Source: Klebsiella aerogenes (GTDB lineage: Bacteria; Pseudomonadota; Gammaproteobacteria; Enterobacterales; Enterobacteriaceae). Taken from it: a DNA stretch of 64,000 bases. The stretch lies in the NCBI GenBank assembly GCA_029027985.1, contig CP119076.1:4834422-4898421 (forward strand), written 5' to 3'. A program made the position numbers and the translations under genes. Under the pieces are notes generated by a model. That model was not told where the DNA came from and did no database searches. It saw only the letters and a program-made list of their open reading frames with translations. Within the stretch, counting starts at the first letter, position 1, and each line of letters opens with the position of its first letter. This document shows positions 26,063-44,082 of the stretch, piece by piece.

Positions 26063-26809
26063 TCAGAGCTTCCCGGAATAATGCCAACATAAATAGCGCA
26101 GCAGGCGAAGCTGTCGTGTAATCCGGCTCGGCTGCAGCAACAGACGATAAAACCACTCCAGGCCAAGGTTCTGCCAGAACTTCGGCGCCCGGTGCACATG
26201 GCCGGTGAAGACGTCGTAGGTCCCGCCAACGCCCATATACAGCGCCTGAGGATAAACCAACCGACAATCGCGCATCAGGATCTCCTGACGCGGCGATCCC
26301 ATAGCCACGGTAACTATTTTCGCCCCGCTGTCGCGTACCCGCTCGAACACCAGCTGACGCTGGTCAGGAGTAAAATAGCCGTCCTGGCTGCCGACGATGT
26401 TCACATTCCAGCGTTCACGCAGCTTCACTTGCGTTTCCGCCAGCACTTCCGGCTTGCCGCCGATCAGAAATACCGGCGTCCCCTGAGCGCCCGCGCGTTC
26501 CATTAACGCTTCCCACAGATCGGCGCCAGCGACGCGCGACACCTGAGCCTGGGGATATTTTTTACGCAGTGAACGCACCACGCTGATGCCATCGGCATAT
26601 TTAAATTCAGCCGCTTCGATCAGCGCTCGCACTTCCGGGTTGTCTTCCACCGCCAGCATTTTCTCGGCGTTGATCGCCACCAACGTCCCCTGACGCAGTT
26701 CGCCGTTGGCGAAGAGATAGTTAAGCGCATGCTGCATGTCGCGCCAGCCAATAAGCTGCAGCCCTCGCAGCGCATACTGCGGCGCGGAAGTGTTATCAGT
26801 CATGTTCAT
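26063..26809 (-). CDS. wecG: UDP-ManNAcA transferase WecG (ECA lipid II synthesis)
   Basis: 248 residues, GT26 (WecG/TagA/CpsF) family. It transfers ManNAcA from UDP-ManNAcA to GlcNAc-PP-undecaprenol. [24 protein letters not shown] and [10 protein letters not shown]...[21 protein letters not shown] are the family motifs. Last gene of the ECA operon, six bases after wzyE. It needs UDP-ManNAcA made by WecB and WecC, and the local wecB is deleted, yet wecG looks fully intact. Confidence 0.94.
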
Positions 26810-26814
26810 CCTTA

Positions 26815-28161
26815 TCAGACCTGCGGTTGCGAAAGCGGCTTAACCCGCTTGTGAATCAATCCTGCGCTGTCCAGGAGCCAGTACAGCAATTTCGCCGCTA
26901 ACAAGCAGATACCAAAGATCACGAGGAAAAACACCACGCGGGAGCCAAACGAGTCCAGCCCTTCTCGCGCCAGCACTATCATGTTGAAGATAGCGCCAAA
27001 ACAGAAACTATGCAGGATAGCCGCCTTGTAGCGATTGCTTTCCTGATTACCCAGTTCATACAGCCAATCAAACCATTTAATAATAAGCCCTACCGCAACC
27101 GCGCCCAGCGGAACAAACCACACGCCGCCCATCACCACCAGCGAACCAATCAGCGTCGGCGAAATCGCCAGTCCTGAATGGTTGTTCAACACTTCCCAGG
27201 TAAAATAGTTGGCGGTGTTCAGCACCATCGTTGGACGACCATGCCACATCCAACTGGGGATAAACACGTAGAAGTCGCGGATCATTGGCGCCAGCCCCTG
27301 AAACTCGATCTTGTCGTAGTTCTGCAGCAGCAGCGCCAGGTTTTCCCACGGCGAGAAGGTATCGCGCGTAAGATAAAGGAAAGTATAAAACGCTTCATCG
27401 CCGCTCACGTTCATCCCATAGCGCTTCAACGCCAGCCAGAACATGCCGACAATCCCCAACACGCCCGCTGCCGCCAGCACCCACAAACTGATCCAGCCGC
27501 GAATAATCCCGATAAACAGGAAGATAGCGAAAGCGATAATGATATTGGCGCGAGTGCCGCCGACAATCGCGTAGGTCAGCAGCCCAAACGCCACGGTACT
27601 GACGAGGAAGAATAGCCACGCCTTATAATCCTGACGCAGGAAATAGACCACCAGCATCGCCGGAATAAAGAAATAGAAGAAGCGTTTCAACGCCACGCCG
27701 GACACTTCAGCGGAGAAAATCTGACTGTAAGAGTGGAGCTTGAACAGCAGGAAACCGTTATGGGCGAAGAAAATACCGACGCACAACAACGCCAGCCCCA
27801 TCAGAATGCCCCAGGTGAGATGGGTTTCCACCCGGTTCATGGTAAACAGCGGACGACGCGGAACATCGCGCGATGCGGAGCGCAGACGCGTTTTATAAGT
27901 CACATAGTAGACCGCGTAGAAGCACACCGCGACCAGCAGCGTCTGCAACAAAATATCCGGTGGCGCCACGCTGACGTCAAAACGGAAGACCAGAATACTG
28001 GTCAGCGGAAAGCCGAAGAAGAACGTCAGCAGGAACAACAACGAAAAGAAGACGTTGAAGTTAAAACGCACGCGGCGGAACTCAAACCAGGTCGCGGTGG
28101 CGATAAACAACGTCGACAGTAACCAGACGACCAGTAACCCGCTAAATTGCATTAACGTCAT
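26815..28161 (-). CDS. wzyE: ECA polysaccharide polymerase WzyE
   Basis: 448 residues with about eleven hydrophobic segments, an inner-membrane Wzy-type polymerase linking ECA trisaccharide repeats. Conserved periplasmic stretches such as [22 protein letters not shown] and [15 protein letters not shown] are present. The start overlaps the wecF stop by four bases (ATGA), the E. coli arrangement. Confidence 0.93.
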
Positions 28162-29234
28162 GCTTGCACCTCCGCCGCCAGTTTCAGCGCCCGCTGCCAG
28201 CCAGCCAGATAGTTCGGGCGGAAGAAGGCGATGCGGCGCTTATCGACGTTCGCCAGCTGACGCTGCGCCTCACGCACCACACCGACGTCCAGCGTATCGC
28301 TGGTGAACAGCACCGGCACCTGTTGCTCGGTCATATCCTGCCAGAACGGGTTTTCGCGGTTGAGCACGCAGGGAACGCCCGCCTGAATCAGCAAACATAA
28401 GGTGCCAATCCCCTGCTGACGCGCAAACAGGAAATAACCCAGATCGCAGCGGCGCAACAGCGCCAGATAATCGTCAAATTCCAGTTTATCACTGAGGATC
28501 TGCAGGCGTTCGCCGCTAAACAGCACCGCACCGGCCTCGCGGACTTCCTTGATGTAGGCTTCGTTGTTGGCCGGATACCCCATTGGTACGATGACATTCA
28601 CCGTATCACCAAACTGCTGATGAATCGCACGCAGCGCCGCCATATGTTCGTTGCTGCGATCGCCGGAGTTACCCACCAGAATCGTCAAGGTTTCGCCGCG
28701 CGGCGCATGATCGGCAAAGTTATTCAGTTCAGGATCCATGCGGGTCGGGAAGTAGAGCAGCTCCCCCGGCACTCGCGGATGATGGTTGGCAAACCAACTG
28801 AGATCGCCGCGGGTCGCGAAGACGCGCCCTACTCGCCCGTGCGCGATGCGGCGCAGCGGATAAAACAGGCGGAACTTCAGGCTGACGGCATTTTCATACA
28901 GATCCGCGCCCCAGATATGCCAGTTAAACTGCGACGGACGAATACCTCCGCTCAACAGCGCCAGCCACAAGCCGGTATTGAACTGACCGTGGAAGAAAAA
29001 ACGCTGCTGGCGGTTGGCTTTGGCTTTAGCGATAACCGCCTGCGCCAGCGACTTTTTGCCCGGATAGCAGGTTATTTCCAGCGCCGGATACGCGTCGCGC
29101 ATGCCTGTCGCATCACCAACGACCATAAATGTCCGGGCCTGCGCGTCGGCCGCCAGTTCGTCGTTAAAAAACCGGAGTACGGTCTGGTTGTGGTGCGGGA
29201 TATCCGATCCCAGTACATGTATCAGTGCTGTCAT
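28158..29234 (-). CDS. wecF: TDP-Fuc4NAc:lipid II Fuc4NAc transferase WecF
   Basis: 358 residues, glycosyltransferase family 56. It adds Fuc4NAc to the GlcNAc-ManNAcA lipid intermediate. Family motifs include [35 protein letters not shown] and [27 protein letters not shown]. Overlaps wzxE and wzyE by ATGA on both sides. It needs dTDP-Fuc4NAc whose first enzymes, RffH and RffG, are not encoded in this operon. Confidence 0.94.
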
Positions 29235-30481
29235 GCCCGTTTACGCCAGAGTAAAAACACGCCACTACAAAGGGCGAAATAAACAATATAAGTAGCCATA
29301 TACGCCTGCGCCGCGCCGATTGCGCCGTGCGCCGGGATAAGCCAATGTGAGAATGCGGTCAGCAAAGTGAACTGGCTGATTTCCGTCAGAATATAAAAAC
29401 GCAACGACGCTTTGGCGATCACCAGATAACCATAAACATAAGCACCGACCTTTAACACATCTCCTACCAGCTGCCAGGCGAAGAGATCGCGCATCGCGGT
29501 AAAGCTCCCGGAAAACAGCAGCCAGATAGCAAAATCGCGCAACAGCCAGACCGTCAGGCTCGCTGCGGCGACCGCTGGCAGCACGAATTTCAACGACTTC
29601 GCAATCTCGCGAGTGATGTCCTTTTTAGCCGTTAGCCGCGACAGCGTGGGCAGCAGATACACGCTGAACGAGGCGGTAATAAACTGCAGGTAGGCATCCG
29701 AGATGCTACTCACCCCCTGCCAAATCCCTACCGCTTCCCAGCCGTAATGCGCCGCCAACAGATTACGCATCATCACATAGGCGACTGGCAATGTGACCGA
29801 GGTAATCAACGCCATCAGGGTAAATTTAGAGAGCTGCCCCGCAAGGCCGTTATCCCAGCGCGGGCGCAGCGCACGCAGTGGGATCACGCCGCGCCGCCAT
29901 AAAACGATAGCCGCTGGCATCACCACCAGCGCCGGAACTAACGCCAGCCCCAGCAGCGCCCCTTGATAGCCGCCGAAATAATAACAAGCGTAATAGGCCA
30001 CGACACCAATCAGGCTACCGGCAATCAGCGAAAACGCATTACCCGCCGCATCGCGAAAGCCTTTCATCAGCGCCAGCAGGAAATTCGCCCACGCGATCCC
30101 CATCTGCACCAGCGCCACCAGCCGTACCAGATTCTGGTAGTGCGTATGGCCGAACAGCCCCTGGCTTATTGGCGCAGCTGCCAGTAAAAAAACCAACGCC
30201 AGTAGCGTTGAAAAACCGAGCACCATCGCCGATGAGGTGCCCACCACCTGTTTCAGGCGCAGGGGATCGTCGTGATGCTGGGCGACCAGCTTAGTCACGC
30301 CGTTAAAAATGCCCGCGCCCGCCAGCACGCCAAGTACGGTGACCAGCTGGCGGAAGTTACCGGCTTGCCCAACGCCAGCGGGGCCAAATGAGACCGCCAG
30401 CAGTTTAACCACCAGCAAACCGGCGCCTATTTTGACTAAGGTAGACGCCGCGGTCCACAGCGATGCTTTTGCCAACGACAT
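29231..30481 (-). CDS. wzxE: ECA lipid III flippase WzxE
   Basis: 416 residues with about twelve membrane helices, polysaccharide transporter (PST/MOP) family. It flips undecaprenyl-linked ECA trisaccharide across the inner membrane. The N-terminal [23 protein letters not shown] and [16 protein letters not shown] are as in E. coli. One base separates it from the wecE stop. Confidence 0.94.
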
Positions 30482-30482
30482 A

Positions 30483-31613
30483 TCAGGAGAAGTAGCTCAG
30501 CAGTGAGTTAATCACCGTCCGTTGGTTTACCGCAGACAGGTTATAGAACAATGGCAAACGCAGAAGGCGCTCGCTCTCCTGAGTCGTATAACGATCCTCG
30601 CCATGGAACTCGCCGAACCGCTCACCTGCCGGGCAGCTATGCAGCGGGATGTAGTGGAATACCGCCAGAATTTCCGCCTCTTTCAGCCAGTTAATCAGCG
30701 CCCCTCGGTCGTTATTATCGCGCAGCTTAATATAAAACATGTGCGCATTGTGCCCGCAGTCGGCAGGGACGATAGGCAGCTCGATACGACCAGCGCGCGC
30801 CAGCGGCAGCAGCGCGTCATAATAGGTTTGCCATAACGTTAGACGCTGCTGGTTAATACGTTCCGCGGCTTCCAGTTGCGCCCACAGATAGGCGGCCTGC
30901 AGATCGGACATCAAATAGCTGGAGCCAATATCGCGCCAGGTGTACTTATCCACCAGACCGCGGAAAAATTGGCTACGGTTGGTGCCTTTTTCGCGAATGA
31001 TCTCCGCGCGTTCCACCAGCTTAGGATCGTTGATAAGCGTCGCGCCGCCTTCACCGCCAGCGGTATAGTTTTTGGTTTCGTGGAAGCTAAAACAGCCGAT
31101 ATGGCCGATGGTGCCCAGCGCTCGTCCTTTGTAGGTTGACATCACGCCTTGCGCGGCATCTTCCACCACAAATAGCTTATATTTAGCGGCAAGCGCCATG
31201 ATAACGTCCATCTCGCAAGCCACGCCCGCATAATGCACCGGAACGATCGCCCGCGTTTTATCGGTGATCGCCGCTTCAATCAGCGTTTCGTCAATATTCA
31301 TCGTATCGCGGCGGATATCCACGAAGACGATTTCGGCGCCGCGCAGCACAAAGGCGTTAGCGGTAGAGACGAAGGTATAGCTGGGCATGATCACTTCATC
31401 GCCCGGTTGAATATCCAGCAACAGCGCCGCCATCTCCAGCGATGCGGTACAGGATGGCGTCAGCAGCGCCTTAGCGGTACCAAAGCGCTGTTCGAACCAC
31501 TGCTGACAGCGACGGGTATAACCGCCGTCGCCGCACAGTTTGCCACTCCCCATCGCCGACTGCATGTAATCGAGTTCAGTCCCCACCACCGGCGGCGCGT
31601 TAAATGGAATCAT
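30483..31613 (-). CDS. wecE: dTDP-4-amino-4,6-dideoxygalactose transaminase WecE
   Basis: 376 residues from MIPFNAPPVVGTELDYM (ATG at 31611-31613); the open frame extends 15 codons upstream into wecD, without conservation. PLP-dependent DegT/DnrJ/EryC1 family. It aminates dTDP-4-keto-6-deoxyglucose to give dTDP-Fuc4N. FSFHETKNYTAGGEGG contains the PLP lysine (K of ETKNYT). Four bases after wecD. Its substrate would come from RmlA/RmlB-type enzymes encoded elsewhere. Confidence 0.95.
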   Translation of the reverse strand: MIPFNAPPVVGTELDYMQSAMGSGKLCGDGGYTRRCQQWFEQRFGTAKALLTPSCTASLEMAALLLDIQPGDEVIMPSYTFVSTANAFVLRGAEIVFVDIRRDTMNIDETLIEAAITDKTRAIVPVHYAGVACEMDVIMALAAKYKLFVVEDAAQGVMSTYKGRALGTIGHIGCFSFHETKNYTAGGEGGATLINDPKLVERAEIIREKGTNRSQFFRGLVDKYTWRDIGSSYLMSDLQAAYLWAQLEAAERINQQRLTLWQTYYDALLPLARAGRIELPIVPADCGHNAHMFYIKLRDNNDRGALINWLKEAEILAVFHYIPLHSCPAGERFGEFHGEDRYTTQESERLLRLPLFYNLSAVNQRTVINSLLSYFS

Positions 31614-31617
31614 CTTG

Positions 31618-32292
31618 TCACCTGTATAACCAGTACGCAGTGCTTTCCACATTCGCACCGCTGAGAATGTAACGTTTAAGCGCGGCGGTGTTGCCCATCT
31701 GGGTCGCCACCCGCAGTGTCGATAGCCCGCGTTGCGCCGCCCAATGACGCGCCGCCTGCATCAGTTCATGACCGGCTCCGCGCCCGGCCAACAGGCCAAT
31801 ACGAGCATCCGTATCGTTGAGCTGACGCAGAGAAACAAACGCACGAATGTCGCCATCTGGCGCGCGGAAGAGCAGGCACTGATGGTCAAAGGTCCCCAGC
31901 ACCGCGTTTTCGATCCATTGCGCGTAGAAACGACCGCTGGCGTCCGCAGCGTACCAGGGCGCGCGAAAACGGCTCATGGAAAAGGCCTCGGCCGCCAACT
32001 CGCGCAGCCGCGCAATATCGCTCTCAACGGCCCATTCGGCGCCGATGTCTGCAGGATTGCCGACTGGCAACGCCAGATCGACCTCGCCTTCCACCAGCTG
32101 GAAACCGAGCTGCTGCAGCGCATCAAGGCACGTGGTATCGCTGGCAGCAACTTTTGCCTGCACCCGCGACCATCCTGCCAGCGCTTCAGACGTCAGCAAC
32201 GGCGCATGCTCGTCAAAGCGCACCATGGCGCTGTTGACGGCAAAGAAGCGGTTCACCCACTCCAGAGCTTCAATATTGGCGCGGACGGGCAT
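31618..32292 (-). CDS. wecD: dTDP-Fuc4N N-acetyltransferase WecD
   Basis: 224 residues from [14 protein letters not shown] (ATG 32290-32292), the E. coli length. GNAT family, with the acetyl-CoA loop [13 protein letters not shown]. It makes dTDP-Fuc4NAc. Two further in-frame ATGs upstream (32319 and the open frame from 32328) would add MTHSYLAHP or more. These extra codons lie in the rearranged wecC-wecD junction and may now be used. In E. coli rffG and rffH lie between wecC and wecD; here only 39 bases separate the wecC stop from this start. Confidence 0.92.
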
Positions 32293-32331
32293 GGGATGAG
32301 CCAGATACGAATGGGTCATGGCGCACACGTC

Positions 32332-33594
32332 TCACCGCCACACGCCTTTGGTGTCGATGATATAAGCCTGAGTCACCCTATCGCCGCTGACGGCTTTAAA
32401 TTCTTTGTGGTCGACTAACATCACCAACACATCGGCGCTGGCCAGCGCTTCGTCGAGAGTTGCCAGCGTGCACAGGCCATCAAGTTTCTTCGGTAACGTG
32501 TGAATGTTGGGCTCAACGACTTGAGTCGCGCCGCTATGCCAACGCGCGATCTGCGCGGCGATTTCCATTGCCGGGCTTTCACGCAGGTCGTCAATGTTAG
32601 GTTTAAACGCCAGGCCAAAACAGGCAATCGTCAGTTCGCTGGCGCGTTTATTGCTGGCGTTCAGGCAGTCGGCGACCTGCGCTTTCACCTGATCGATAAC
32701 CCATTCCGGCTTGTGATCGTTCACCTCGCGGGCGGTGCGGATCAGACGCGCCTGCTGCGGGTTTTGCGCCACGATAAACCACGGGTCAACGGCGATGCAG
32801 TGGCCGCCGACACCGGGGCCCGGCTGCAGAATGTTCACACGCGGGTGGCGATTCGCCAGGCGGATCAGTTCCCAAACATTAATCCCCTGATCGGCACAAA
32901 TCAGCGACAGCTCATTAGCAAACGCGATATTAACGTCGCGGAAGCTGTTTTCGGTCAACTTGCACATCTCAGCGGTGCGCGAGTTGGTCACCACGCATTC
33001 GCCTTCCAGGAAAATCTTATACAATTCGCTGGCGCGGGCGGAACAGACCGGCGACATGCCGCCAATCACGCGATCGTTTTTGATGAGCTCGACCATCACC
33101 TGACCCGGCAGCACGCGCTCAGGGCAGTAAGCGATGTTCACGTCCGCCGCTTCGCCAGCCTGCTGCGGGAAACTGAGGTCCGGGCGCATTTCCGCCAGCC
33201 ACTCCGCCATCTGTTCGGTCGCGCCGACTGGCGAGGTGGATTCCAGAATCACCAGCGCCCCTTTCTTCAGGGTGGACGCGATGGATTTGGCGGCAGACTC
33301 CACAAAGACCATATCCGGCTCATGCCCGCCTTTGAACGGCGTCGGCACAGCAATCAGGTAAGCATCAGATTCCACCGGCACGGTGGTGGCGCTTAAATAC
33401 CCCTGCTCAACCGCGGTTTTCACCACGCTGGCTAGCTCTGGTTCGACGATATGAATCTCACCACGGTTAATGGTATCAACGGCGTGTTGATTAATGTCCA
33501 CGCCAACCACCCGCCGTTGCCGGGAAGCAAATGCGGCAGCGGTTGGCAGACCAATATACCCAAGGCCAATCACTGAAATGGTAGAAAAACTCAT
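32332..33594 (-). CDS. wecC: UDP-ManNAc dehydrogenase WecC
   Basis: 420 residues, as in E. coli. It oxidises UDP-ManNAc to UDP-ManNAcA with NAD. The N-terminal Rossmann motif is ISVIGLGYIGLPTAAAFA and the catalytic Cys lies in GPGVGGHCIAVDPWF. NSFRDVNIAFANELS is the central family motif. The ATG overlaps the stop of the wecB remnant (ATGA), so the ancient wecB-wecC coupling is kept. Intact despite loss of the local source of its substrate. Confidence 0.95.
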   Translation of the reverse strand: MSFSTISVIGLGYIGLPTAAAFASRQRRVVGVDINQHAVDTINRGEIHIVEPELASVVKTAVEQGYLSATTVPVESDAYLIAVPTPFKGGHEPDMVFVESAAKSIASTLKKGALVILESTSPVGATEQMAEWLAEMRPDLSFPQQAGEAADVNIAYCPERVLPGQVMVELIKNDRVIGGMSPVCSARASELYKIFLEGECVVTNSRTAEMCKLTENSFRDVNIAFANELSLICADQGINVWELIRLANRHPRVNILQPGPGVGGHCIAVDPWFIVAQNPQQARLIRTAREVNDHKPEWVIDQVKAQVADCLNASNKRASELTIACFGLAFKPNIDDLRESPAMEIAAQIARWHSGATQVVEPNIHTLPKKLDGLCTLATLDEALASADVLVMLVDHKEFKAVSGDRVTQAYIIDTKGVWR

Positions 33595-33677
33595 AACGTT
33601 ACCTGATTATTTTTAAGAGCGGATAAAATACGTTTGGTGGTCTCTGGTCTCACGCCAAATACAGTCAGTACTTTCAC
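33591..33677 (-). pseudogene. wecB: wecB (UDP-GlcNAc 2-epimerase) remnant, in-frame internal deletion
   Basis: A GTG-initiated 28-codon frame precedes wecC exactly where wecB should be. Its first twelve residues, MKVLTVFGVRPE, match the WecB N-terminus (MKVLTVFGTRPE in E. coli), and its last part, RILSALKNNQVTL, matches the WecB C-terminus (RILEALKNNRISL). About 345 central codons are missing, including the whole active site, so no epimerase can be made. The frame is preserved through the junction and its stop still overlaps the wecC ATG. Recognition of both ends rests on recalled E. coli WecB. Confidence 0.88.
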
Positions 33678-33733
33678 ATCGATTCTCTTCGATTAGGTGA
33701 TGAAGGCGCAGAGCGCTTCATCACGGGCCTCAT

Positions 33734-34780
33734 TCATTGGACACGACGACGTGCTAACGCAACGCCTGCGCCGATGAGCGCGCCCACAATCCCCCACATC
33801 ACCATCAGAAAGACCCGTCGCGGGCTATCGCGTTTTACAGGTTCTTCCGGTGTACGCAAATATCTGTAAGTCTGAAAACGCGGATCAAGCGTTGGACCAA
33901 CATTTAGCGTGTTCAGCATGGCGCGGTTCTGGTCATAGTCGAGATCGAATTCGGGTCCCACAGCCTGCAGATTTTCCAGCCGTGCCTGTAGCATTGGCCG
34001 CCCGAGTAAGAAGAGTTCGGAGGCTGGCAGCTGTTCCGCCGGGACATCAGTCTCGCTACGGGAAATATTATGCTGCTGGGCGATTTTCAACGCCTGCTCC
34101 ACGCTCTGGACGCGGCGGTTGTAGATCTCGCTCGCCACCTCTTCCTGACGCTTCACCTGCGCTTTCATCTGCACAGTACGCGCCGCCCAGGCCCCCTTCA
34201 GTTCGTCGTTAAGATGACCTGCCGCACGCTGGCTGGCAAAAGCGACGTACTGGCGCAGCAGATTATTGGCGTCCGGCGCGGTTTCCGCCGTTAGCTTGAT
34301 GCTGTCATTGACGCTTTTCACGGGATCGCCGGGAATAAACAGAATGTCGTTAATCAGATCGTCAAGCATCGCGGCATCCGCGCGCGAGTTGCCCGACTGG
34401 CGTTGCTTGTAGTAATCAGTCTGCAACCAGAAGTCACGGCGGGTATCCCATGACGCCTGCTGCATAATGAACTCTTTGTACGCTTCATCCATGGCGGAAG
34501 GCTGATCTACCGAAGCCAGGTTGGCCTTGATATCCAGGTTACGTAAGAACTGCTGCTGCGAATAATATCCGCCCAGCATATTGACGGTTGGTCGGTCGGT
34601 AATCGCCGTCGCGCTCCACTCCTGGCGAGCAAAAAAGGAATAAATAAGAACGATCAGCGCGAATAACACGGCGATGCCGGCTATCCAGCCTTTTCCTGCC
34701 CATAAGGCGCGAAACAGCCCGCGAATATCCAGTTCGTTCTCAACGTTCACTGCTTGTGCTCCCGGTAATGGTTGAGTCAT
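33734..34780 (-). CDS. wzzE: ECA chain-length regulator WzzE
   Basis: 348 residues from the ATG at 34778-34780 (MTQPLPGAQAVNVENELD); a GTG immediately before it is also possible. Polysaccharide copolymerase (Wzz) family. It has two membrane segments (about 32-52 and 322-342) with a long periplasmic coiled-coil domain between them, and the P/G-rich second helix has PRRVFLMVMWGIVGALIGAGVAL. It sets ECA chain length and helps make cyclic ECA. Ten bases after wecA. Confidence 0.94.
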   Translation of the reverse strand: MTQPLPGAQAVNVENELDIRGLFRALWAGKGWIAGIAVLFALIVLIYSFFARQEWSATAITDRPTVNMLGGYYSQQQFLRNLDIKANLASVDQPSAMDEAYKEFIMQQASWDTRRDFWLQTDYYKQRQSGNSRADAAMLDDLINDILFIPGDPVKSVNDSIKLTAETAPDANNLLRQYVAFASQRAAGHLNDELKGAWAARTVQMKAQVKRQEEVASEIYNRRVQSVEQALKIAQQHNISRSETDVPAEQLPASELFLLGRPMLQARLENLQAVGPEFDLDYDQNRAMLNTLNVGPTLDPRFQTYRYLRTPEEPVKRDSPRRVFLMVMWGIVGALIGAGVALARRRVQ

Positions 34781-34793
34781 CACTTCCCCAGTT

Positions 34794-35897
34794 TTACTTG
34801 GTTAAATTTGGATTATTGCCGCTGTGTCGCCGAATTCTGCGTCTAATGCGCTTTACCAGGCGCGCCACTTTCCATGCGCGCTTAATGCAGTAGCCATAAA
34901 GTAAAAAAGCAAACAAAAAGAGTATTAACATCACCCATTCAGGAACAATACGGGTGTATTCCGCCACCACGCCAACCAGCGCCAGTAAAGCGGCAGCCAG
35001 CGTAATCAGGACAAAAGCCTGCCGGGAAGTAAACCCGGCACGCATGATCAAATGATGAATATGCTGACGGTCAGGGGAGAATGGGCTCATGCCTTTTCTC
35101 AGGCGACGATACATAATCGCCACCATATCCATCAACGGAATCGCGATAATCCACAGCGCGGTAACCGGGCTGATAGGATGCGTCTTACCCTGCGTCGTCT
35201 CCAACAGGATCCAGATAATGGTGAAGCCAATCATGGTGCTGCCGGCATCACCCATAAACACTTTATAACGACGACCGAGCGCGCCGAGGTTAAGTAAAAT
35301 ATAAGGCAGAATGGCGGCGATCATCGCAAAACACCACATAGCCAGGCTGTACTGGCCATCGAACCACAAGATGATGCCTGTTGCCGCGAAAGAGACGGAA
35401 GATAACCCGCCGAGCAGGCCGTCGATGCCATCCACCATATTGAAGGCGTTGATTGCCGCCCAAACGGCGAAAAGCGTGAGGAAAAAGCCAAAGGGGCCGA
35501 GCACCAGCTCCCATGAGCCGAAAATATAGCCAAGGCTGCTGAGATGCAGATTCCCTGCCGTCATCATGATAACGGCTATCGCGGCCTGAATGACCGCGCG
35601 AATTTTGACACTGATATCAAAACGGTCATCCAACGCTCCGACCAACACCAGCACGCCAGCGCAAGCCAGATACAGCGTGGCATGAGGGATATAATAATCC
35701 GCGATGGCAAAGGTAAAACAAATACCGGCATAAACTGAGATACCACCAACTAACGGAATCAAACCCTGATGCCGTTTCCGATAGTTTGGCTTATCCACCA
35801 ACCCAATTTTTTTTGCTACTTTGCGGGCAACAAATATAAAAAGGGTCGTGAATAAGAAAACACTGATTAATTCAGTAATAGCAGTGAGTAAATTCAC
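34794..35897 (-). CDS. wecA: UDP-GlcNAc:undecaprenyl-phosphate GlcNAc-1-phosphate transferase WecA
   Basis: 367 residues with about eleven membrane helices. It starts ECA (and many O-antigens) by placing GlcNAc-1-P on undecaprenyl phosphate. Conserved cytoplasmic motifs are LVGALDDRFDI, FNMVDGIDGLLGG, VFMGDAGSTMIGF and the basic His loop SPDRQHIHHLIMRAG. First gene of the ECA operon, downstream of rho on the same strand. No ops/JUMPstart element was noticed upstream. Confidence 0.95.
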   Translation of the reverse strand: MNLLTAITELISVFLFTTLFIFVARKVAKKIGLVDKPNYRKRHQGLIPLVGGISVYAGICFTFAIADYYIPHATLYLACAGVLVLVGALDDRFDISVKIRAVIQAAIAVIMMTAGNLHLSSLGYIFGSWELVLGPFGFFLTLFAVWAAINAFNMVDGIDGLLGGLSSVSFAATGIILWFDGQYSLAMWCFAMIAAILPYILLNLGALGRRYKVFMGDAGSTMIGFTIIWILLETTQGKTHPISPVTALWIIAIPLMDMVAIMYRRLRKGMSPFSPDRQHIHHLIMRAGFTSRQAFVLITLAAALLALVGVVAEYTRIVPEWVMLILFLFAFLLYGYCIKRAWKVARLVKRIRRRIRRHSGNNPNLTK

Positions 35898-43460: not shown

Positions 43461-43742
43461 ATGGCAAAAAGCGCAGCAGCCCTGCATATTCTGGTAAAAG
43501 AAGAGAAACTGGCGCAGGAGATCCTCGCCAAACTGGAACGCGGCGTCAGCTTCGATCATCTGGCGAAGCGCTACTCAAAGTGTCCATCAGGACGCAACGG
43601 CGGTGATTTAGGCGAATTCCAACAGGGGGTGATGGTCGGCCCGTTCGATAAAGCCGTCTTCAGTTGCCCGTTGCTCAAGCCCTATGGACCGGTGCAAACC
43701 AAATTTGGCTACCATATCATCAAGGTGCTGTATCGCCGTTAA
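43461..43742 (+). CDS. Parvulin-type peptidyl-prolyl isomerase, first tandem copy
   Basis: 93 residues, the size of E. coli PpiC, and about two thirds identical to the copy immediately downstream. [30 protein letters not shown] and [12 protein letters not shown] are the parvulin core, including the conserved His and GYHIIKV. Differences cluster in the helical part ([22 protein letters not shown]). This copy is more divergent from E. coli PpiC than its neighbour, so it is the extra paralogue. Divergent from rep. Confidence 0.9.
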
Positions 43743-44072
<330 letters not shown>

Positions 44073-44082
44073 TAAGGTGTAT

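What the first reader, a model, noticed from the sequence alone, without database searches (positions are those of the whole stretch)
33591..33677. wecB reduced to a 28-codon in-frame stump inside an otherwise intact ECA operon
Between wzzE and wecC, where wecB (about 376 codons) should be, a GTG frame begins with the WecB N-terminus (MKVLTVFG-RPE) and ends with its C-terminus (RILSALKNNQVTL), with everything between removed. The stop-start overlap with wecC is kept. WecC and WecG, which use UDP-ManNAc downstream, are intact. So either a WecB-type epimerase is encoded elsewhere (for example in an O-antigen or capsule locus), or the strain cannot make normal ECA. The RPE segment has drifted (T to V), which suggests the deletion is not brand new.
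Basis: partly seen in the sequence, partly recalled or inferred. Interest (0 to 1): 0.85.

Follow-up and report, generated by a model that had tools for sequence, protein, structure and literature searches.

The report
Lost ECA epimerase covered by O-locus
A Klebsiella-group bacterium has deleted nearly all of an enzyme gene needed for a surface sugar polymer made throughout its order, and most likely gets by with a sister enzyme encoded in its O-antigen genes; a second genus shows the same loss, so one polymer's pathway can come to depend on another's.

Summary
The stub is real. Window 33591-33677 (-) is a 28-codon GTG frame keeping wecB codons 1-15 and the last 13; 348 codons' worth is missing in frame, and the ATGA overlap with wecC is kept. 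Three residues invariant in 100 intact loci (93 distinct sequences) have changed, so the deletion is old, not an assembly error. The operon is not otherwise intact: rffG and rffH are also missing. All three functions are encoded once each, intact, in the O-antigen locus elsewhere on the chromosome (rmlB, rmlA, and a TIGR00236 epimerase, 'mnaA'). The nearest relative has both wecB and a 96% identical O-locus epimerase, so redundancy came first. The remaining ECA genes stay under strong purifying selection. Of 178 family genomes, 113 have wecC and 111 have wecB beside it; the exceptions are this genome and G168, another genus, with its own in-frame wecB stub, no rffGH, and a related O-locus where exporter and glycosyltransferase genes are broken but mnaA and rmlBA are open. 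Best reading: the O-locus epimerase supplies UDP-ManNAc to WecC/WecG and ECA is still made. ECA was not measured. O-antigen/ECA precursor overlap is known; I found no report of wecB loss with such cover in eight searches of one open-access library.

The parts
33591..33677 (-). wecB stub: 28 codons, GTG start, wecB codons 1-15 fused in frame to the last 13 codons; stop overlaps the wecC start (ATGA)
34794..35897 (-). wecA, intact (367 aa)
33734..34783 (-). wzzE, intact (349 aa)
32332..33594 (-). wecC, UDP-ManNAc dehydrogenase, intact (420 aa; NF008286, 833 bits)
32329..32331 (-). place where rffG-rffH lie in other relatives; here wecC and wecD are adjacent and both genes are absent
31618..32328 (-). 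wecD, intact (236 aa)
30483..31619 (-). wecE, intact (378 aa)
29231..30481 (-). wzxE, intact (416 aa; named by position and similarity to relatives)
28158..29234 (-). wecF, intact (358 aa)
26815..28161 (-). wzyE, intact (448 aa; named by position and similarity to relatives)
26063..26809 (-). wecG, ManNAcA transferase, intact (248 aa)

Best explanation
wecB was lost because it had become redundant. An O-antigen locus between gnd and the his genes (G000:C1 about 1,711,400-1,725,600) carries rmlBADC, an ABC exporter (wzm-wzt), glycosyltransferases and a second non-hydrolysing UDP-GlcNAc 2-epimerase (mnaA, 1,723,242-1,724,375). Inferred mechanism: MnaA makes UDP-ManNAc for the O-antigen; this soluble nucleotide sugar is also taken by WecC and then WecG, so ECA is still made. 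RmlA and RmlB from the same locus likewise replace the missing RffH and RffG. The internal deletion stayed in frame because translation of the stub still delivers ribosomes to the overlapping wecC start (translational coupling). Shown: the deletion, the sole intact epimerase and its place, its presence beside an intact wecB in the sister lineage, purifying selection on the rest of the ECA genes, and a second independent case. Inferred: UDP-ManNAc sharing, continued ECA synthesis, and the coupling role of the stub.
For: One PF02350 gene in the genome, intact; TIGR00236 wecB equivalog at 514 bits, cut-off 210; aligns over 370 residues with the solved E. coli WecB 1f6d; nine active-site positions (positions recalled) conserved in it and in 3 other O-type epimerases. 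It sits in an rmlBADC-wzm-wzt-glycosyltransferase cluster beside the his genes; RmlB and RmlA each occur once in the genome, both there. Sister G001 has intact wecB plus a 96% identical O-locus epimerase; the other 18 of 20 genus genomes have only wecB. Stub codons 1-15 changed on the G000 branch 4 nonsynonymous: 2 synonymous (one more synonymous change is ambiguous), the nine retained ECA genes 55: 211 on the same branch (Fisher p 0.02, or 0.04 with the ambiguous change). Family survey: 111 of 113 wecC genomes keep wecB beside it; the exceptions are G000 and G168, both with an O-type epimerase. G168: independent 75-codon in-frame stub, rffGH absent, O-locus with wzm and three glycosyltransferase-type genes broken but mnaA, rmlA, rmlB open. 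rffGH/rmlB reciprocity: in 20 of 20 genus genomes either rffG is in the ECA operon or an RmlB of at least 60% identity lies elsewhere, never both or neither; 19 of 19 further genomes without rffGH have RmlB.
Against: No ECA or UDP-ManNAc measurement. E. coli shows that redundancy seldom leads to loss: about 270 surplus epimerase places over 5374 genomes, yet 5374 genomes hold at least 80% of wecB against 5375 with wecC. On the G000 branch the ECA genes carry somewhat more nonsynonymous change than on the G001 branch (55:211 against 29:169, p = 0.11; strict amino-acid changes 28 against 17), which would fit mild relaxation. Three of five genomes with the O-type epimerase still keep wecB. In G168 other genes of the O-locus (rmlC, rmlD, wzt, one glycosyltransferase) are also still open, so selective retention is suggestive only. 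The coupling role rests on two stubs and an invariant overlap.
Confidence: 0.85

Rival explanations
1. The strain is ECA-negative or stops at lipid I: wecB was lost, O-locus UDP-ManNAc is too little or not made under most conditions, and the rest of the operon is decaying slowly.
For: Mild excess of nonsynonymous changes on the G000 branch in the ECA genes (55:211 against 29:169, p = 0.11); no biochemical evidence for ECA.
Against: All nine remaining wec/wz genes are open and strongly constrained (pairwise dN/dS 0.009-0.093 against G001; N:S 55:211 on the G000 branch where about 3:1 would be expected without constraint from the site counts), although the stub has had time to drift at a near-neutral ratio. 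The enzyme family needed is present and intact.
Confidence: 0.1
2. Assembly or engineering artefact: a full wecB was collapsed, or a laboratory in-frame deletion was sequenced.
For: A tidy in-frame internal deletion resembles a designed one; reads could not be examined.
Against: Three residues beside the junction, invariant in 100 of 100 intact loci, are changed, and five of the 15 retained N-terminal codons changed on this branch only; an artefact would leave intact ends. No scar or foreign bases. The genome holds no other PF02350 gene than the O-locus one. A second genus shows the same kind of stub.
Confidence: 0.03
3. The 28-residue peptide has gained a function of its own (for example regulation of wecC, or a small protein).
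For: Frame, start and the region before the start are kept; the 3' part shows 1 difference in 39 nt against G001.
Against: The N-terminal part drifts with nonsynonymous changes; the conserved parts are the translation start and the wecC start region, which coupling explains without a peptide function. I did not search for homologues of the free peptide.
Confidence: 0.04

Closest known systems
E. coli WecB (RffE, NfrC), non-hydrolysing UDP-GlcNAc 2-epimerase, PDB 1f6d/1vgv
   Same: The stub's two ends are WecB ends; the O-locus protein is the same enzyme family over its full length
   Different: The stub has no catalytic domain; the active candidate lies in the O-antigen locus and is 64-66% identical to the ECA-type WecBs of the genus
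RffG/RffH (RmlB-ECA/RmlA-ECA) versus O-antigen RmlB/RmlA redundancy
   Same: O-antigen enzymes cover an ECA precursor step; two reviews state partial redundancy (PMC7439462 and PMC12212991, passages read)
   Different: Here it extends to WecB, the UDP-ManNAc step, and the ECA copies are gone altogether
O-antigen clusters with mnaA, for example E. coli O1 variant clusters with rmlBDAC, wzx and mnaA (PMC5293828, passages read)
   Same: rml genes plus mnaA in one O-antigen cluster
   Different: Those are wzx/wzy clusters; here wzm/wzt. E. coli as a species keeps wecB
   Same: In-frame wecB stub, rffGH absent, rmlBADC-wzm-wzt-GT-mnaA locus
   Different: Different deletion end points (75 codons kept), different chromosomal place (beside a fur gene), O-locus partly decayed

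Membership tests
WecB / MnaA non-hydrolysing UDP-GlcNAc 2-epimerase (applied to the O-locus gene C1:1723242-1724375) | Full-length match to the curated family model above cut-off | tested here: met
   TIGR00236 514 bits, cut-off 210, residues 4-372; PF02350 402 bits
WecB / MnaA non-hydrolysing UDP-GlcNAc 2-epimerase (applied to the O-locus gene C1:1723242-1724375) | Catalytic and binding residues (R10, K15, D95, E117, E131, R135, H213, S290, E296; positions recalled) | tested here: met
   All nine identical to the G001 ECA WecB
WecB / MnaA non-hydrolysing UDP-GlcNAc 2-epimerase (applied to the O-locus gene C1:1723242-1724375) | Interconverts UDP-GlcNAc and UDP-ManNAc | not testable with these tools
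   needs an enzyme assay
WecB (applied to the stub 33591-33677) | Complete two-domain enzyme | tested here: not met
   28 codons left of 376; the genome-wide PF02350 search lists only the O-locus gene
ECA (wec) operon | Gene set wecA-wzzE-wecB-wecC-rffG-rffH-wecD-wecE-wzxE-wecF-wzyE-wecG (full order recalled) | tested here: not met
   wecB reduced to a stub, rffG and rffH absent; the other nine genes present and open
ECA (wec) operon | Product is ECA | not testable with these tools
   needs immunoblot or mass spectrometry
Gene loss covered by a redundant paralogue | Cover was present before the loss | tested here: met
   Sister G001 has both genes, O-locus epimerase 96% identical; no tree of the O-locus gene was built
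Gene loss covered by a redundant paralogue | Rest of the pathway remains constrained after the loss | tested here: met
   N:S 55:211 on the G000 branch; mild non-significant excess over G001 noted; the branch includes time before the deletion

The most novel reading that the evidence does not exclude
ECA biosynthesis in some Enterobacteriaceae has become dependent on the O-antigen locus: variable O-loci that carry rmlBA plus mnaA repeatedly strip the ECA operon of rffG, rffH and then wecB, in frame at wecB to spare coupled wecC. This ties a conserved order-wide glycan to a variable one, so that loss or exchange of the O-antigen locus in such lineages should abolish ECA too.
Probability: 0.6. 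Interest if true: 0.6.

Novelty: new variant of a known kind. Interest (0 to 1): 0.5.

Why it matters
ECA is treated as the constant glycan of the Enterobacterales and the O-antigen as the variable one. If ECA precursors come only from the O-antigen locus, the two are no longer genetically independent: O-locus exchange or loss would also remove ECA, and a survey that scores a missing wecB would wrongly call the strain ECA-negative. It also gives a natural test of whether soluble UDP-ManNAc is freely shared between glycan pathways, and of translational coupling between wecB and wecC.

Tried and rejected
Brand-new deletion or assembly error: rejected because invariant residues beside the junction have changed. 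Capsule locus as the source: the epimerase lies with rmlBADC-wzm-wzt beside the his genes, after gnd, manC, manB and ugd. Junction microhomology: no direct repeat found in window 33500-33800; the two RPEA motifs of WecB (residues 10 and 313) share only 7-9 of 12 bases in the 12 sequences printed and do not match the right end point here, so the deletion mechanism is left open. E. coli strain CH4790, the one E. coli genome with a wecB match under 80%, is a wecA-to-wecB deletion that also removes wzzE and about half of wecA, a different kind of event. Other low-identity WecB hits in the family survey (G166, G171, G136, G201, G113) are ECA genes beside wecC, G201 and G113 degenerate, not unlinked epimerases. 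Naming the species: the first 20 kb of contig 2 match conjugative plasmids of several genera and gave no name; G001 has the length of Klebsiella aerogenes KCTC 2190, which is recalled, not tested. A first translation of the G168 stub was in the wrong frame and was repeated correctly. No structure prediction and no tree of the epimerases was run.

Full report
What is there. Window 33591-33677 (-) is a 28-codon open frame between wzzE and wecC. Against the intact 376-codon wecB of the closest relative held (G001, same genus), the frame keeps codons 1-15 and the last 13 codons; 348 codons' worth is missing, in frame, with no extra bases. The GTG start and the ATGA overlap with wecC are kept; both are found in all 93 distinct intact wecB sequences from 100 loci. 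Of those 100 other ECA loci (20 taken by G handle, 80 named records kept of 147 found by the search for related loci; some genomes occur twice), none lacks wecB: the wzzE-wecC spacing is 1177-1243 bp in all 100 and 143 bp here.

Age. In the 15 retained N-terminal codons, T9V, A13T and I14T fall on residues identical in 100 of 100 intact loci. Polarised with eight outgroup genomes of the genus, five of the six codons that differ from G001 are changes on the window's branch and one is ambiguous. The retained 3' part, which overlaps the start region of wecC, shows one difference from G001 in 39 nt. The deletion is therefore not recent and not an assembly error. The reads themselves could not be seen.

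The operon is less intact than the finding says. rffG and rffH are also absent: wecC and wecD are adjacent. That is common: 9 of the 20 genus genomes, this one included, lack rffGH, and the Dickeya operon described in PMC7877592 (passages read) lists no rffGH either, though it lists wecB. Among the 20 genus genomes, all 9 without rffGH have an RmlB of at least 75% identity elsewhere, and all 11 with rffG have no second RmlB above 60%. Partial redundancy of RffG/RffH with RmlB/RmlA is in the reviews (PMC7439462, PMC12212991; passages read).

Where UDP-ManNAc can come from. The genome has one Epimerase_2 gene at E <= 0.001, at C1:1,723,242-1,724,375, open over 378 codons. It matches TIGR00236 at 514 bits against a cut-off of 210, aligns over 370 residues with E. 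coli WecB 1f6d, and keeps nine active-site residues whose positions I recalled. Its neighbours, named by Pfam or NCBIfam matches and by position, are gnd, manC, manB, ugd, an epimerase-type gene on the other strand, then rmlB, rmlA, rmlD, rmlC, an ABC-2 permease, a Wzt-like ATPase, a methyltransferase/capsule-synthesis-like protein, three glycosyltransferases around the epimerase, and hisIE. RmlB (other hits 31% identity or less) and RmlA (other hits 40% over about 54 residues) occur once each in the genome, both in this locus. All three nucleotide-sugar functions missing from the ECA operon are thus encoded there. By contig coordinates the locus and the ECA operon lie about 3.1 Mb apart; I did not test whether the contig is circular.

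Order of events. G001 has an intact wecB and also an O-locus epimerase 96% identical to the window genome's, beside rmlA/rmlB and the his genes; the remaining 18 of 20 genus genomes have only wecB. So the cover very probably existed before the deletion; I built no tree of the O-locus gene. The nine remaining ECA genes have changed on the window's branch by 55 nonsynonymous and 211 synonymous steps, against 29 and 169 on the G001 branch (p = 0.11; strict amino-acid changes 28 against 17), while the N-terminal part of the stub changed 4 to 2 (p = 0.02 against the ECA genes, or 0.04 if the ambiguous codon is counted). Pairwise dN/dS against G001 is 0.009-0.093 for the nine ECA genes and 0.033 for the O-locus epimerase. 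The branch includes time before the deletion. The slight excess on the window's branch is against my reading, but far from decay.

How unusual it is. I searched the same sample of 178 family genomes for WecB (114 matched at 1e-60) and WecC (113 matched at 1e-110). Comparing the two tables by eye, WecB lies within about 300 bp of WecC in 111 of the 113 (one of these, G201, with a disrupted wecB); the exceptions are this genome and G168. In E. coli, 5375 of 5426 genomes match wecC, 5375 match wecB and 5374 have at least 80% of wecB; the odd one is a larger wecA-wecB deletion. A second epimerase by itself does not force the loss: a distant search with the O-locus gene finds 5648 places over 5374 E. 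coli genomes, so up to about 270 surplus copies coexist with wecB.

A second case. G168, with a 3.46 Mb main contig and of another genus in the family, has wzzE, a 75-codon in-frame frame and wecC in order; the frame joins wecB residues 1-11 to about the last 58, with different end points from ours. rffGH are absent there too, and the other ECA genes are open. Its only full epimerase lies 2 Mb away in a locus with the gene order rmlB, rmlA, rmlD, rmlC, wzm, wzt, glycosyltransferases, mnaA, next to a fur gene. In that locus wzm, the GT871 homologue (a transposase-type gene with an rve domain inserted), one GT632 homologue and the GT382 homologue are broken, while rmlB, rmlA, rmlD, rmlC, wzt, the second GT632 homologue and mnaA are open. 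An epimerase kept open beside a broken exporter is what dependence of ECA on it would predict, though other genes there are open as well.

Association. In 391 family genomes, five carry an O-type epimerase at 72% identity or more (G000, G001, G140, G414, G168, E <= 1e-166). All five lack rffGH and two of five lack wecB. Within the 113 wecC genomes that is 2 of 4 carriers against 0 of 109 others; by hand, the exact probability of both losses falling in carriers is 6/6328, about 0.001. Counting any second epimerase seen (7 genomes, one of them with a stop inside) it is 21/6328, about 0.003. Relatedness is not corrected for, and a genome must have some epimerase to lose wecB and keep ECA, so the association is a consistency check rather than proof.

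Mechanism. Established pathway knowledge: WecB makes UDP-ManNAc, WecC oxidises it to UDP-ManNAcA, and WecG transfers ManNAcA to lipid I (reviews above). Because UDP-ManNAc is a soluble intermediate, the O-locus epimerase can feed WecC; this is inferred. The in-frame nature of both stubs and the invariant ATGA overlap suggest that translation through the remnant is kept to initiate wecC; also inferred, and two in-frame stubs would occur by chance once in nine.

What is new. O-antigen/ECA sharing of WecA and of RmlAB is known (PMC7439462, passages read), and O-antigen clusters with mnaA are known (PMC5293828, passages read). In eight searches of the held open-access library (listings read) I found no report of a wecB lost from the ECA operon with an O-locus epimerase as cover. 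Subscription papers are largely not in that library. I file it as a new variant of a known kind.

Noticed in passing
window 32329-32331 (wecC-wecD junction): rffG and rffH are absent from the ECA operon here and in 8 of the other 19 genus genomes; in all 20 either rffG is in the operon or an RmlB (at least 60% identity) lies elsewhere, never both or neither.
   Followed up: yes
L180:13026-13253 (-), genome G168: Independent 75-codon in-frame wecB stub in another genus, with an unlinked O-locus epimerase.
   Followed up: yes
L181:2442-11211, genome G168: O-antigen-type locus beside a fur gene with wzm and three glycosyltransferase-type genes broken (transposase-type insertion, frame breaks) while rml genes and mnaA are open.
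   Followed up: partly
L160/L161, genome G001: Two nearly identical rmlB-rmlA copies in the O-antigen region, one beside the epimerase and one beside rmlD- and rmlC-like genes.
   Followed up: no
L220, E. coli CH4790: Deletion joining a truncated wecA to the 3' third of wecB; of 5375 E. coli genomes with a wecB match it is the only one under 80% coverage.
   Followed up: partly
window 43461-44075: Two adjacent parvulin-type (PpiC-like) frames of 93 and 109 codons with very similar sequence, apparently a tandem duplication (named from recall).
   Followed up: no
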